Part shown: in pieces, positions 4,439 through 37,323 of the stretch
Position numbering within the stretch: position 1 is the first letter of the stretch
Layout of the letters: every line of letters begins with the position of its first letter
Source: Archangium lipolyticum
Lineage (GTDB): Bacteria; Myxococcota; Myxococcia; Myxococcales; Myxococcaceae
Assembly (NCBI RefSeq): GCF_024623785.1
Contig: NZ_JANKBZ010000026.1
Location: forward strand, 62,001-126,000
Direction of reading: 5' to 3'
Length of the DNA: 64,000 bases
Notes under the pieces: generated by a model
What the model was told of the DNA's origin: nothing
What the model saw: the letters and a program-made list of their open reading frames with translations, nothing else
The model's database searches: none
Translations under genes and position numbers: made by a program

Positions 4439-4474
4439 TACCCTCACCCTAGCCCTCTCCCAGAGGGAGAGGGG
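4439..4474 (-). repeat. Palindromic intergenic repeat R3
   Basis: The sequence TACCCTCACCCTAGCCCTCT continues into the palindrome at 4453-4473. It lies 48 bases past the stop codon of the EnvC-like gene in the same relative orientation as R1, R4, R5, R6 and R7, and forms an inverted pair with R2. Confidence 0.8.
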
Positions 4475-15399: not shown

Positions 15400-16176
15400 A
15401 TGCACCCGGCCAATCAGTACAGCCTGCTCGTCCCGAGGCGCTCGCGCCTGGGACGTTTCATCGTCGTGTCGCTCGTGGCCCATGCGGTGGTGCTGCTCGC
15501 CATGGGGCTGTACGCCACCTTCTTCTCGGGCCCCCGGGTGCAGCTGGACCAGAAGCCCATCCGCGCCACGCTGGTGCGCCTGGGCAAGCCGCGTGACGAG
15601 AAGTTGCTGCCTCGCAAGGAGCAGCCGCGTCCGCCCCCACCCAAGAAGGTGGAGTCCCCCGCCGCGCCCACACCCGCCGCGCCCGAGCCGGCCAAGGTGG
15701 CAGTGCCCGTGCCCGGGATGAAGCCGGAGCCCGCCCCCAAGCCCGCGCCCCAGAAGGGGGAGACCCAGGGCGAGGACCGGCGCAACCGGCTCTTCGGCGC
15801 CTTCGACAAGCTCGCAAAGCCCTCGAAGCAGGAGGAGGATCCGGAGGGTGCCGAGGACGGCGATCCGAACGGCGACTCCGCCACCGCCGAGGGCGAGCGC
15901 TACTTCGGCCTGCTGACGTCTCAGGTGACCCGCAACTACAACGTTGCGGACACCATCCCCGAGGACGAGCGCATGCGCCTCAGGGCCCTGGTCTTCATGC
16001 GCCTGAGCCGCACCGGCGAGGTCATCGAGGCCCGGCTGACCAAGACCAGCGGCAACACCCTCTTCGACTCGGCCGTGGTGGCCGCGGTGAAGAAGGCCTC
16101 TCCCTTCTCCCCTCCTCCCGACCATCTGCGGGACTCGCTGCAGAAGAACGGCATCAACCTGGAGTTCAGCCCGTGA
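15400..16176 (+). CDS. tolA: TolA/TonB-like energy-transducing protein
   Basis: 258 residues. One N-terminal membrane helix at about 21-45 (IVVSLVAHAVVLLAMGLYAT) follows a basic start. Residues 55-130 are a proline/lysine/alanine-rich linker that could span the periplasm, and 130-165 are acidic. The C-terminal 90 residues fit the TonB C-terminal fold (ALVFMRLSRTGEVIEARLTK, TLFDSAVVAAVKKASPF). Position between tolR and tolB argues for the TolA role, although the tail reads as TonB_C rather than enterobacterial TolA. The tolB GTG start overlaps its stop (GTGA). Confidence 0.88.
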   Translation: MHPANQYSLLVPRRSRLGRFIVVSLVAHAVVLLAMGLYATFFSGPRVQLDQKPIRATLVRLGKPRDEKLLPRKEQPRPPPPKKVESPAAPTPAAPEPAKVAVPVPGMKPEPAPKPAPQKGETQGEDRRNRLFGAFDKLAKPSKQEEDPEGAEDGDPNGDSATAEGERYFGLLTSQVTRNYNVADTIPEDERMRLRALVFMRLSRTGEVIEARLTKTSGNTLFDSAVVAAVKKASPFSPPPDHLRDSLQKNGINLEFSP

Positions 16177-17459
16177 ACGTGAAAGCCCTTCTCCTCTCGC
16201 TCGTCCTCCTGCCGCTGGCGGCGCTCGCCCAGGCGCCCGTCATCCAGATCTCCGGCGCCAACTTCCGGCCGCTGCCCCTGGCCGTCACCCCGCCACTGGT
16301 GCAGGGCGAAACGGGCAAAGAGCCCGCCCAGGACGTGGACGAGGCGCTCATGTACGACCTGCGCGCCTCCGGCCTCTTCCAGGTGCTGGACCGGGCCAGC
16401 TTCCTGGCGGACCCGAAGGAAGGCATGGTGGCGGGCAGCATCAACTTCTCGCGCTGGGCGGACGTGGGCGCCGAGTCGCTGGTGAAGTACTCGCTGGCCC
16501 GGGACGGCGGCGAGCTGAAGGCCGAGGCGCGCGTGTTCAGCGTGGGCAGCGGCCGCGAGGAGTTCAAGACGGCCCAGAGCGCGCCCGCCGCGCAGCCGAG
16601 CCTGCTGGCCCACAAGGTCGCGGACGCCATCTACCGCCACTACACCCGCGAGCCGAGCCCGTTCCTCTCGCGCATCACCTACGTGCGCAAGAGTGGCGCC
16701 AACCGGGACGTGTGGGTGGCGGACTGGGACGGGCGCAACGCGAAGCAGGTGACGCGCGGTGGCATCAACGTGCTGCCGACGCTCGGGCCGGACGGGTCGG
16801 TGGGCTACACCTCGTACCAGCAGGGCAAGCCGGACCTGTACATCCAGAAGCCGGACGGCGACACGGTGCGCATCAAGACGTCCGAGGGGCAGATGGCCAC
16901 GGGCATCGCCTTCTCGCCGGACGGCAAGCGCATCGCGTACGCGCTGGCCGATGGGGAGAGCGCGCAGATCTGGGTGGCGGAGGCGGATGGGGACAACGCG
17001 AAGCAGCTCACCGACACGCGCTTCGGCATCAACACCAGCCCCGCGTGGTCACCGGACGGCAAGCGGCTGGCGTTCGTGTCCAACCGGGGCGGCTCGCCGC
17101 AGGTGTACGTGATGAACGCGGACGGCTCGGCGGTGCGCCGGCTCACCTTCCAGGGCAACTACAACCAGACGCCGGACTGGTCGCCCCGGGGAGATCTGAT
17201 CACCTTCACGGCACGCGACGAGCGCAACGCCTTCGATCTCTTCACGGTCAACGTGGAGAACGGGAAGATCACCCGCCTCACGCAGGATCAGGCGAACAAC
17301 GAGGAGCCGAGTTTCTCGCCCAATGGGAGGCTGATCCTGTTCACCTCCACGCGCAACGGAGGGTCGAAGCTCTTCGTCATGACGGCGGACGGAAACAACC
17401 AGGTGGCGCTGCCAGCGCAGGACAAGTCCGCGATCACCACGCCCGACTGGGGCCGCTGA
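16173..17459 (+). CDS. tolB: Tol-Pal system beta-propeller protein TolB
   Basis: 428 residues from a GTG that overlaps the tolA stop. Signal peptide 1-19 ends ALA. Residues 25-165 form the N-terminal alpha/beta domain (DEALMYDLRASGLFQVLDR). Residues 170-428 form a six-bladed propeller of WD40-like repeats, each with S-P/R-D-G-K (GIAFSPDGKRIAYA, SPAWSPDGKRLAFV, TPDWSPRGDLITFT, EPSFSPNGRLILFT). TolB is periplasmic and binds Pal. No pal or cpoB follows in this window: repeat R4 and the cysteine-rich genes come next, so Pal must be encoded elsewhere. Confidence 0.95.
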   Translation: MNVKALLLSLVLLPLAALAQAPVIQISGANFRPLPLAVTPPLVQGETGKEPAQDVDEALMYDLRASGLFQVLDRASFLADPKEGMVAGSINFSRWADVGAESLVKYSLARDGGELKAEARVFSVGSGREEFKTAQSAPAAQPSLLAHKVADAIYRHYTREPSPFLSRITYVRKSGANRDVWVADWDGRNAKQVTRGGINVLPTLGPDGSVGYTSYQQGKPDLYIQKPDGDTVRIKTSEGQMATGIAFSPDGKRIAYALADGESAQIWVAEADGDNAKQLTDTRFGINTSPAWSPDGKRLAFVSNRGGSPQVYVMNADGSAVRRLTFQGNYNQTPDWSPRGDLITFTARDERNAFDLFTVNVENGKITRLTQDQANNEEPSFSPNGRLILFTSTRNGGSKLFVMTADGNNQVALPAQDKSAITTPDWGR

Positions 17460-17468
17460 GACCAAAAT

Positions 17469-17509
17469 CCCTCCCTCTCCCTCTGGGAGAGGGTTGGGGT
17501 GAGGGTATT
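17469..17509 (+). repeat. Palindromic intergenic repeat R4
   Basis: The palindrome is at 17473-17493, followed by TTGGGGTGAGGGTATT. It starts about 10 bases after the tolB stop. The bases after it are almost the same as those after R5, because the region from here to 17946 is tandemly duplicated. Confidence 0.85.
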
Positions 17510-17595
17510 CGGAACCAAAGCTGGCTCCAGCCGTTTACCCTGAACTAACGTCACGCATGCTGTGCCCCCTTTCACCAGTCAGCGAAGGAGTCGGC

Positions 17596-17925
17596 ATGAA
17601 GATGACGTCGAAGCTCGTGGTCTCCTGCGTGTCCGCCATGGCATTCGTTGCCGCGTGGCTCCCGGTCGCCGCGTCCGCGGCGGACGGTGAGCGAAACGCC
17701 ACCCAGACCAACGTCTGCAGCGCCGCCAGTGTCGAGGAGGGCACCCGGACCGAAGCGAGGGAGGCCCATGTGGAGCAGGAAAGCGGAATCGGCCCGACGT
17801 CTGGCTTCTGCACCCTGGACTGTTCGCAGTGTTCGACAAGCAAGGACTGCTGGAGCCGCGGAGCCGGGAGTTGCGCCAGCATTCCGGCCTGCGTCCAGTC
17901 CGAGCCACTGGCCACCCTGAACTAG
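17596..17925 (+). CDS. Small secreted cysteine-rich protein, tandem copy 1
   Basis: 109 residues from the ATG at 17596, with AAGGAG six bases ahead. An upstream ATG at 17557 is less likely because this ribosome site lies between the two. Residues 1-32 are a signal peptide (ends ASA). The mature part of about 77 residues has seven cysteines: one near its start (TNVC) and six in the C-terminal 40 residues, spaced CTLDCSQCSTSKDCWSRGAG then SCASIPACVQ. The C-terminus SEPLATLN is shared with copy 2. No family is recognised; it is probably a disulfide-bonded secreted or periplasmic protein. The odd cysteine count would leave one free or intermolecular. Confidence 0.82.
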   Translation: MKMTSKLVVSCVSAMAFVAAWLPVAASAADGERNATQTNVCSAASVEEGTRTEAREAHVEQESGIGPTSGFCTLDCSQCSTSKDCWSRGAGSCASIPACVQSEPLATLN

Positions 17926-17941
17926 CGAGGACGCGGAAGTA

Positions 17942-17983
17942 CCCCCCCCTCTCCCTCCGGGAGAGGGCTGGGGTGAGGGTATT
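17942..17983 (+). repeat. Palindromic intergenic repeat R5
   Basis: The palindrome is at 17947-17967 with one changed loop base (CTCCGGG instead of CTCTGGG), then CTGGGGTGAGGGTATT. It starts 17 bases past the stop codon of cysteine-rich copy 1. It lies 474 bases after R4 and 478 before R6, which marks the tandem unit length. Confidence 0.85.
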
Positions 17984-18069
17984 CGGAAACCGTGCTGGCT
18001 CCGGCCGTTTGCCCTGCACTAACGTCACGCATGCTGTGCCCCCCTTTCACCAGTAGCGAAGGAGTCGGC

Positions 18070-18402
18070 ATGAAGATGACGTCGAAGCTCGTGGTCTCCT
18101 GCGTGTCCGCCATGGCATTCGTTGCCGCGTGGCTCCCGGCCGCCGCATCCGCGGCGGACGATGAGCGCAATGCCTCTTCGGCCAATGTCTGCAGCGTCGC
18201 CAGTGTCGAGGAAGGAGAAGCGCAGGATTCCCATGCCGAGCAGTCGGAGAGCCAGAGCACCGGAAGCAGCCTGGCGGGAGGCTACTGCTACCTGGACTGC
18301 TCGCGTTGCGATACGAACCAGGACTGCTGGAGCCGCGGAGCCGGGAGTTGCACCAGCATCAAGCTCTGCGTCCAGTCCGAGCCGCTAGCCACCATGAAGT
18401 AG
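18070..18402 (+). CDS. Small secreted cysteine-rich protein, tandem copy 2
   Basis: 110 residues from the ATG at 18070, again with AAGGAG six bases ahead. The first 30 codons, which encode the signal peptide, differ from copy 1 by only one base. Most of the mature region has diverged (EEGEAQDSHAEQSESQSTG here), yet all seven cysteines and the C-terminal scaffold stay: CYLDCSRCDTNQDCWSRGAG, then SCTSIKLCVQSEPLA. The upstream 100 bases are also nearly the same as copy 1, so both copies probably share promoter control. Function unknown. Confidence 0.82.
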   Translation: MKMTSKLVVSCVSAMAFVAAWLPAAASAADDERNASSANVCSVASVEEGEAQDSHAEQSESQSTGSSLAGGYCYLDCSRCDTNQDCWSRGAGSCTSIKLCVQSEPLATMK

Positions 18403-18420
18403 AGAAGCACCGGGTGCGCC

Positions 18421-18460
18421 CTCCCTCTCCCCCTGGGAGAGGGCCGGGGTGAGGGTCTAC
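18421..18460 (+). repeat. Palindromic intergenic repeat R6
   Basis: The palindrome is at 18425-18445 (loop CCCTGGG), then CCGGGGTGAGGGTCT. It starts 18 bases past the stop of cysteine-rich copy 2 and ends just before the aminotransferase start at 18473. R4, R5 and R6 are direct repeats that frame both cysteine-rich genes. Confidence 0.85.
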
Positions 18461-18472
18461 ATTTCGCCCACC

Positions 18473-19657
18473 ATGGACGCGCCCCTCTTCCGCACCCAGT
18501 GGTCGCTCGACCCCGAGGTGACCTTCCTCAACCACGGCTCCTTTGGCGCCTGCCCCACGGCGGTGCTGGAGGAGCAGTCCCGGCTGCGAGCCCGCATGGA
18601 GGCCGAGCCGGTGCGCTTCCTCCACCGGGAGCTCGAGGCCCTGTCGGACGCGGCCCGAGGGGCGCTCGGGACCTTCCTGGACGCGGACCCGGACGACCTG
18701 GCCTTCGTCAACAACGCCACCACGGGCGTCAACACCGTGCTGAAGTCGCTGCGCTTCGACCCTGGCGACGAGCTGCTCACCACGGACCACGAGTACAACG
18801 CCTCCAGGAACGCGCTCGACTTCGTGGCCAGCCGCTGGGGCGTGAAGGTGGTGGTGGCGAAGCTGCCCTGGCCCGTGACCTCGGCCCAGGCGGTGGTGGA
18901 CACGGTGCTCGCCCACGTCACCGGGCGCACCCGGCTGCTGCTCATCGACCACATCACCAGCCAGACGGCACTGGTGCTCCCGGTGGCGGACCTCATCCGC
19001 GCGCTGCGCGAGCGAGGCGTGGAGACGCTCGTGGACGGAGCCCACGGGCCCGGGCAGGTGCCCCTCTCCCTGCGCCAGCTGGGCGCCGCGTACTACACGG
19101 GCAACTGCCACAAGTGGATGTGCGCGCCCAAGGGGGCGGCCTTCCTCTACGTGCGGAGAGATCTCCAGCCGGGCATCCGCCCCGTCGTCATCAGTCACGG
19201 GTACAACTCGCGGCGCGAGGACCGCTCACGGTTCCGCCTCGACTTCGACTGGCTCGGCACGGACGATCCCACCCCGTACCTCTGCGTGCCCAAGGCGCTG
19301 GAGGTGATGGGCGGGATGCTGCCCGGCGGCTGGCCCGAGGTGATGGCCTCCAACCGGGCCAAGGCGCTGGAGGCACGCGCCATCCTGTGCCAGCGGCTCG
19401 GGGTGGCCCCCCACTGCACCGAGGACATAGTGGGCGCCATGGCCACCGTGGGCCTGCCCGACGGCTTCCCGGCAGTGCCCTCGGCGCTCGGGTTGGACCC
19501 ACTCCAGGACCGGCTCCTCTTCGAGTACGGCATCGAGGTGCCCATCACTCCCTGGCCCCGGCCACCCCACCGGCATGTGCGCGTGTCCGCCCAGCTCTAC
19601 AACTCGCGGGCGGAGTACCAGCGGCTGGCCGACGCCCTGGAGGCGCTGCTGCGCTGA
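18473..19657 (+). CDS. Class V aminotransferase fold protein (isopenicillin-N epimerase-like)
   Basis: 394 residues from the ATG at 18473; an earlier GTG at 18449 lies inside repeat R6 and is rejected. The fold-type I PLP features are present: TFLNHGSFGACP at the start, AFVNNATTGVNTVL at the phosphate site, LVDGAHGPGQVPL with the PLP-pairing Asp, and the Schiff-base Lys214 in TGNCHKWMCAPKG. The motif order matches the isopenicillin-N epimerase / cysteine-desulfurase-like branch. No beta-lactam gene is near, so epimerase activity should not be assumed. A decayed copy of its 3' end lies about 2 kb downstream. Confidence 0.88.
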   Translation: MDAPLFRTQWSLDPEVTFLNHGSFGACPTAVLEEQSRLRARMEAEPVRFLHRELEALSDAARGALGTFLDADPDDLAFVNNATTGVNTVLKSLRFDPGDELLTTDHEYNASRNALDFVASRWGVKVVVAKLPWPVTSAQAVVDTVLAHVTGRTRLLLIDHITSQTALVLPVADLIRALRERGVETLVDGAHGPGQVPLSLRQLGAAYYTGNCHKWMCAPKGAAFLYVRRDLQPGIRPVVISHGYNSRREDRSRFRLDFDWLGTDDPTPYLCVPKALEVMGGMLPGGWPEVMASNRAKALEARAILCQRLGVAPHCTEDIVGAMATVGLPDGFPAVPSALGLDPLQDRLLFEYGIEVPITPWPRPPHRHVRVSAQLYNSRAEYQRLADALEALLR

Positions 19658-37265: not shown

Positions 37266-37323
37266 GGGTTCAACCTGGGAGGCTCGATACCCTCACCCCG
37301 TCCCTCTCCCAGAGGGAGAGGGG
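37266..37323 (-). repeat. Palindromic intergenic repeat R7 (extended form)
   Basis: The palindrome is at 37302-37322. The whole 58 bases match R1 except for one inserted base and one change near GGAGGC. It begins 3 bases past the stop codon of the Omp85 gene, in the common orientation. Confidence 0.85.

What the first reader, a model, noticed from the sequence alone, without database searches (positions are those of the whole stretch)
17473..18445. Tandem pair of secreted cysteine-rich proteins: conserved leader, diverged mature region, fixed cysteines
Two adjacent genes encode proteins of 109 and 110 residues. The first 30 codons (signal peptide) differ by one base and the upstream 100 bases are almost the same. 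The middle of the mature proteins has diverged in sequence and length, yet all seven cysteines and the C-terminal scaffold (D-C-W-S-R-G-A-G-S-C) are kept. A conserved leader, variable mature part and fixed cysteine frame is the pattern of secreted peptide families under diversifying selection, such as venom peptides or bacteriocin-like effectors. In a predatory bacterium this is worth testing. I know no described family with this frame.
Basis: partly seen in the sequence, partly recalled or inferred. Interest (0 to 1): 0.75.

Follow-up and report, generated by a model that had tools for sequence, protein, structure and literature searches.

The report
Secreted six-cysteine miniprotein pair
Two neighbouring genes of a myxobacterium make small exported proteins with a tightly conserved, disulfide-type C-terminal core of about 30 residues; they belong to an apparently undescribed family found so far only in Myxococcaceae, and they do not show the diversifying selection expected of venom-like peptides.

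Summary
The tandem pair is real: gene A 17596-17925 (109 aa) and gene B 18070-18402 (110 aa), both with ribosome-binding sites and signal peptides. They define a family with no match in Pfam, NCBIfam, PHROGs or PDB, found in 34 of 195 Myxococcota genomes searched, all Myxococcaceae (six genera).

The conserved unit is a C-terminal six-cysteine core, C-x3-C-x2-C-x5-C-x7-C-x(2-5)-C. AlphaFold2 folds it alone with pLDDT 92. Between it and the signal peptide lies a variable, predicted-disordered, mostly acidic linker. The seventh cysteine, in the linker, is not fixed, and some members are only signal peptide plus core. One clade lost cysteine 2 and gained another beside cysteine 1, which favours disulfides.

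The venom-like reading is not supported. The core is under purifying selection, the linker is relaxed and no region is convincingly above omega 1. No immunity, transport or modification genes travel with it.

In a related genome the pair is also present with A and B types in swapped order. Upstream and leader group by species, the core by type: a mosaic expected from recombination within a tandem array flanked by REP-like repeats.

Best reading: an exported three-disulfide miniprotein acting outside the cytoplasm by binding. Its target is unknown.

The parts
17596..17925 (+). gene A, 109-aa exported six-cysteine-core protein (core type 'GFCTLDCSQCSTSKDC')
   Evidence: ORF with AAGGAG ribosome-binding site; homologues; tree partner G006_2
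18070..18402 (+). gene B, 110-aa paralogue (core type 'GYCYLDCSRCDTNQDC')
   Evidence: ORF with ribosome-binding site; tree partner G006_1
17596..17679 (+). A: signal peptide, residues 1-28, predicted cleavage ASA|AD
   Evidence: read from sequence; inferred, no signal-peptide program available
18070..18153 (+). B: signal peptide, residues 1-28
   Evidence: read from sequence; inferred
17680..17802 (+). A: acidic variable linker with the seventh, non-fixed cysteine
   Evidence: pLDDT < 50 over most of it; charge -5; relaxed omega
18154..18279 (+). B: acidic variable linker with the seventh, non-fixed cysteine
   Evidence: charge -8; omega
17803..17892 (+). A: six-cysteine core C-x3-C-x2-C-x5-C-x7-C-x5-C
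   Evidence: alignments A1-A3; core model pLDDT 91.8
18280..18369 (+). B: six-cysteine core, same spacing
17585..17590 (+). A: ribosome-binding site AAGGAG
   Evidence: sequence
18059..18064 (+). B: ribosome-binding site AAGGAG
   Evidence: sequence
17473..17506 (+). REP-like palindromic repeat upstream of A
   Evidence: exact pattern match, 0 expected in shuffles; about 500 copies in the genome
17947..17980 (+). REP-like repeat between A and B
18423..18456 (+). REP-like repeat downstream of B

Best explanation
A and B are Sec-exported precursors of a small three-disulfide miniprotein. Shown: signal-peptide-like N-terminus, variable linker, and a conserved six-cysteine core of about 30 residues that is the minimal unit of the family. 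Inferred: after export and signal removal the six core cysteines oxidise into three disulfides. The linker acts as a flexible tether or dispensable pro-region, and its odd seventh cysteine, where present, may join two molecules. The folded core acts outside the cytoplasm (periplasm, cell surface or medium) as a stable binding module for another molecule. A and B are two core types that predate the split from the closest relative holding the pair. They sit in a tandem array that recombines, so their upstream and leader parts look alike within each species while the two core types persist. Estimated likelihood: exported disulfide miniprotein 0.85; extracytoplasmic ligand, inhibitor or effector as its role 0.5.
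For: Alignment of 31 relatives: exactly six core cysteines in every one, fixed spacings apart from the last loop and a few first-loop changes. A clade where C2 is lost and a new cysteine stands beside C1 keeps the count at six, as disulfides would require. g6 members are signal peptide plus an 8-residue spacer plus core. AlphaFold2 on the core alone pLDDT 91.8, linker mostly below 50 in the full-length model. Core under purifying selection. Tree groups A with G006_2 and B with G006_1 (support 94/86 and 88/82), gene order swapped; upstream plus leader sites species:type 6:1, core 1:12, Fisher p 0.001.
Against: No solved fold matched, so disulfide connectivity and function are not shown. No signal-peptide predictor was available; some Myxococcus leaders lack a clear AxA site and could stay in the membrane. 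AlphaFold confidence on a 33-residue cysteine-rich query is weak evidence. Several species-type sites are adjacent and may be one event, so the mosaic p-value is optimistic. Leader synonymous sites are also conserved in a family group without tandem copies, so gene conversion is not the only reading.
Confidence: 0.6

Rival explanations
1. Structural or cell-envelope module: a single divergent unit of the myxobacterial Cys-rich repeat type (TIGR04201, as in the TraA stalk) used for surface or matrix structure, with no diffusible effector role.
For: Same bacterial group and extracytoplasmic setting; PMC3325183 describes TIGR04201 as Cys repeats of secreted myxobacterial proteins proposed as a rigid stalk. 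One of 23 members gave a weak TIGR04201 hit, E 0.32. Core near neutral, under purifying selection.
Against: The hit is far from significant and cores alone give none. The core is never seen repeated in tandem or attached to another domain in the relatives read.
Confidence: 0.2
2. Antagonistic secreted toxin or bacteriocin-like effector in an arms race with prey or kin.
For: Export signal, compact cysteine core, patchy distribution, paralogues, two persistent core types.
Against: Core omega mostly 0-0.6 and no region convincingly above 1. Core net charge about zero, unlike typical cationic antimicrobial peptides. No immunity or transport gene nearby.
Confidence: 0.15
3. Ribosomally made, enzymatically modified peptide precursor (RiPP) or metal-binding peptide.
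For: CxxxCxxC stretch; three members have a weak hit to Clo7bot Cys-rich peptide TIGR04333, best E 0.0024.
Against: No radical SAM or other maturase among neighbours examined; Sec-type leader; the C2-loss clade breaks the CxxxCxxC motif yet keeps six cysteines.
Confidence: 0.05

Closest known systems
Myxobacterial Cys-rich repeat TIGR04201 (TraA stalk repeats, PMC3325183)
   Same: Myxobacterial, exported, cysteine-rich; cysteines thought to form disulfides
   Different: TIGR04201 units are repeated inside large surface proteins with three invariant cysteines; here a single six-cysteine core ends a small protein, and the model matches only at E 0.32
Conotoxin-like venom precursors (from general knowledge)
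   Same: Order signal, pro-like linker, C-terminal cysteine core; small multi-copy genes
   Different: In venoms the mature loops are hypervariable under positive selection; here the core is the conserved part and the linker varies
Clo7bot Cys-rich peptide TIGR04333
   Same: Short cysteine-rich peptide; best member E 0.0024
   Different: Matches weakly in 3 of 23 members, carries a signal peptide, no partner radical SAM gene found nearby

Membership tests
TIGR04201 Myxo_Cys_RPT | significant score against the NCBIfam model | tested here: not met
   one of 23 members, E 0.32; ten core or short sequences no hit
TIGR04201 Myxo_Cys_RPT | repeated units in a large surface protein | tested here: not met
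   proteins of 72-117 aa with one core
Venom-type hypervariable peptide precursors | mature cysteine region evolving faster than the leader, omega above 1 | tested here: not met
   core omega 0-0.38 in seven groups; A vs B core 0.55; one cross-type interspecies comparison 0.98
Venom-type hypervariable peptide precursors | toxic activity | not testable with these tools
   needs purified peptide
Clo7bot RiPP (TIGR04333) | clear match to the model and adjacent radical SAM enzyme | tested here: not met
   3 of 23 members, best E 0.0024; window proteins 6.1 bits against a cut-off of 31; no such neighbour in the loci examined
Bacterial lipoproteins | lipobox cysteine at the end of the hydrophobic region | tested here: not met
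   VVSC at residues 8-11 lies inside the hydrophobic stretch and the cysteine is absent from most relatives
Disulfide-rich miniproteins (general kind) | even, fixed cysteine frame with compensating moves | tested here: met
   six core cysteines in all 31 members, C2 loss paired with a new cysteine
Disulfide-rich miniproteins (general kind) | disulfides actually formed | not testable with these tools
   needs mass spectrometry

The most novel reading that the evidence does not exclude
A and B are two specificities of one secreted disulfide binder kept side by side across species, in a small recombining cassette array where REP-like repeats homogenise promoter and leader while two core types are retained, possibly as A-B dimers joined through the linker cysteine.
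Probability: 0.15. Interest if true: 0.65.

Novelty: new member of a known kind. Interest (0 to 1): 0.42.

Why it matters
It adds an apparently undescribed family of exported six-cysteine miniproteins, with a compact core predicted with confidence and no solved relative found, in a group of predatory and social bacteria whose small exported proteins are little known. The minimal g6 form (72 aa precursor) is easy to express. If the core binds a defined target, it would be a new natural disulfide scaffold. The tandem pair is also a clear small case of within-array recombination shaping 5' and core parts differently.

Tried and rejected
Known families: Pfam, NCBIfam, PHROGs and PDB gave only weak or chance-level matches. 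Fold search of the full model and of the core found nothing useful. Lipoprotein reading rejected: the VVSC stretch lies too early and is not conserved. Positive selection tested and not supported. Linker synonymous and nonsynonymous rates are both raised between G000 and G006 above neighbouring genes, which fits a mosaic or poorly aligned linker better than selection. A shared partner gene was sought in 14 loci and not found. No empty site: in same-genus genomes without the pair, the aminotransferase lies in other surroundings. Upstream regions share no obvious promoter across genera by eye. Plasmid search negative. The genome-collection scan with the window protein found nothing; with Myxococcus members it found four named Myxococcus strains. 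Paper searches found no description of the family.

Full report
Observation. Gene A (17596-17925) and gene B (18070-18402) lie on the + strand between tolB (16173-17459; identified from its sequence, not by a family search) and a class-V aminotransferase (ORF 18449-19657, probable ATG start 18473). Each has an AAGGAG ribosome-binding site.

Family. A search with A over 96 genomes of the window's family, then with an alignment over 195 genomes of the phylum, finds relatives only in the window's own family (Myxococcaceae, inferred from the named Myxococcus relatives): 34 genomes, six genera at E <= 0.01. A core-only model gives the same picture with weak, unconvincing hits elsewhere. Distribution is patchy: of six same-genus genomes, G000 and G006 have the pair, G005 one copy, and G002-G004 none at that threshold. 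No curated family or solved structure matches. Named relatives include four Myxococcus strains.

Anatomy. Every relative aligned has a hydrophobic leader, a linker of 8-56 residues (counted from residue 29), mostly acidic, and a C-terminal core with exactly six cysteines. Spacing is 3, 2, 5, 7, then 5, 3 or 2. One clade (g5, g4, G059) reads 0, 6, 5, 7, 3 because C2 became G and a cysteine appeared beside C1; two other members have 2, 2, 5, 7 or 6, 3. In g6 the whole precursor is 72 residues. AlphaFold2 gives the core pLDDT 91.8 alone and about 89 inside the full protein, with most of the linker below 50. No PDB fold matched; for so short a query this is weak evidence of novelty.

Selection. 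Pooled omega in seven groups of close relatives: core 0-0.38; linker 0.25-0.67 in five groups, 1.16 in one pair with few changes and undefined in g6 (dS 0); leader 0-0.72. Between A and B: leader 0.34, linker 0.52, core 0.55. Some interspecies comparisons have leader omega about 1 or infinite on a handful of changes, and one cross-type core comparison is 0.98. Neighbouring genes between the two species have dS 0.05-0.17, so the leader divergence there is ordinary. The data show constraint on the core and relaxed change in the linker, not diversifying selection.

Mosaic. G006 holds the same locus with the same neighbours, but its first gene matches B and its second A. Informative sites are species-type in upstream and leader (6 to 1) and type-specific in the core (12 to 1), p 0.001. 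Three adjacent species sites may be one event. REP-like repeats lie before A, between A and B, and after B, and about 500 such repeats occur in the genome, none in the g6 and g7 genomes tested. Recombination between array copies explains the pattern simply; an ancestral three-gene array with different losses is an alternative for the swapped order.

Context. Beyond G006, neighbours differ between genera: phosphoglucomutase and acetyltransferase, terpene synthase and short-chain dehydrogenase, cyclophilin, a protein kinase. No immunity, transport or modification gene recurs. The unit is a stand-alone gene.

Verdict. Most likely an exported three-disulfide miniprotein with an extracytoplasmic binding role, in an apparently undescribed family of a known kind. 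The toxin reading stays possible but unsupported.

Noticed in passing
838-871, 4440-4473, 17473-17506, 17947-17980, 18423-18456, 37289-37322: REP-like palindrome CCCTCTCCCNNNGGGAGAGGGNNGGGGTGAGGGT: 515 copies in this genome and 263-585 in three same-genus genomes, none in the g6 and g7 genomes tested.
   Followed up: partly
G002:C1:3088301/3088401, 3703262/3703363, 4958358/4958458: Inverted pairs of the repeat about 100 bases apart, reminiscent of REPINs.
   Followed up: no
L141, L142, L143: Three weak Y1 transposase (PF01797) matches in the window's genome at the cut-off; possible REP-associated transposases.
   Followed up: no
L012 and L089 (G018); L007 and L092 (G006); L013 and L088 (G054); L023 and L090 (G061): Several genomes hold two or more differing family members, in G006 and G018 from both main branches of the tree.
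   Followed up: partly
18473: Probable true start of the aminotransferase is this ATG, not the GTG at 18449 inside the repeat.
   Followed up: no
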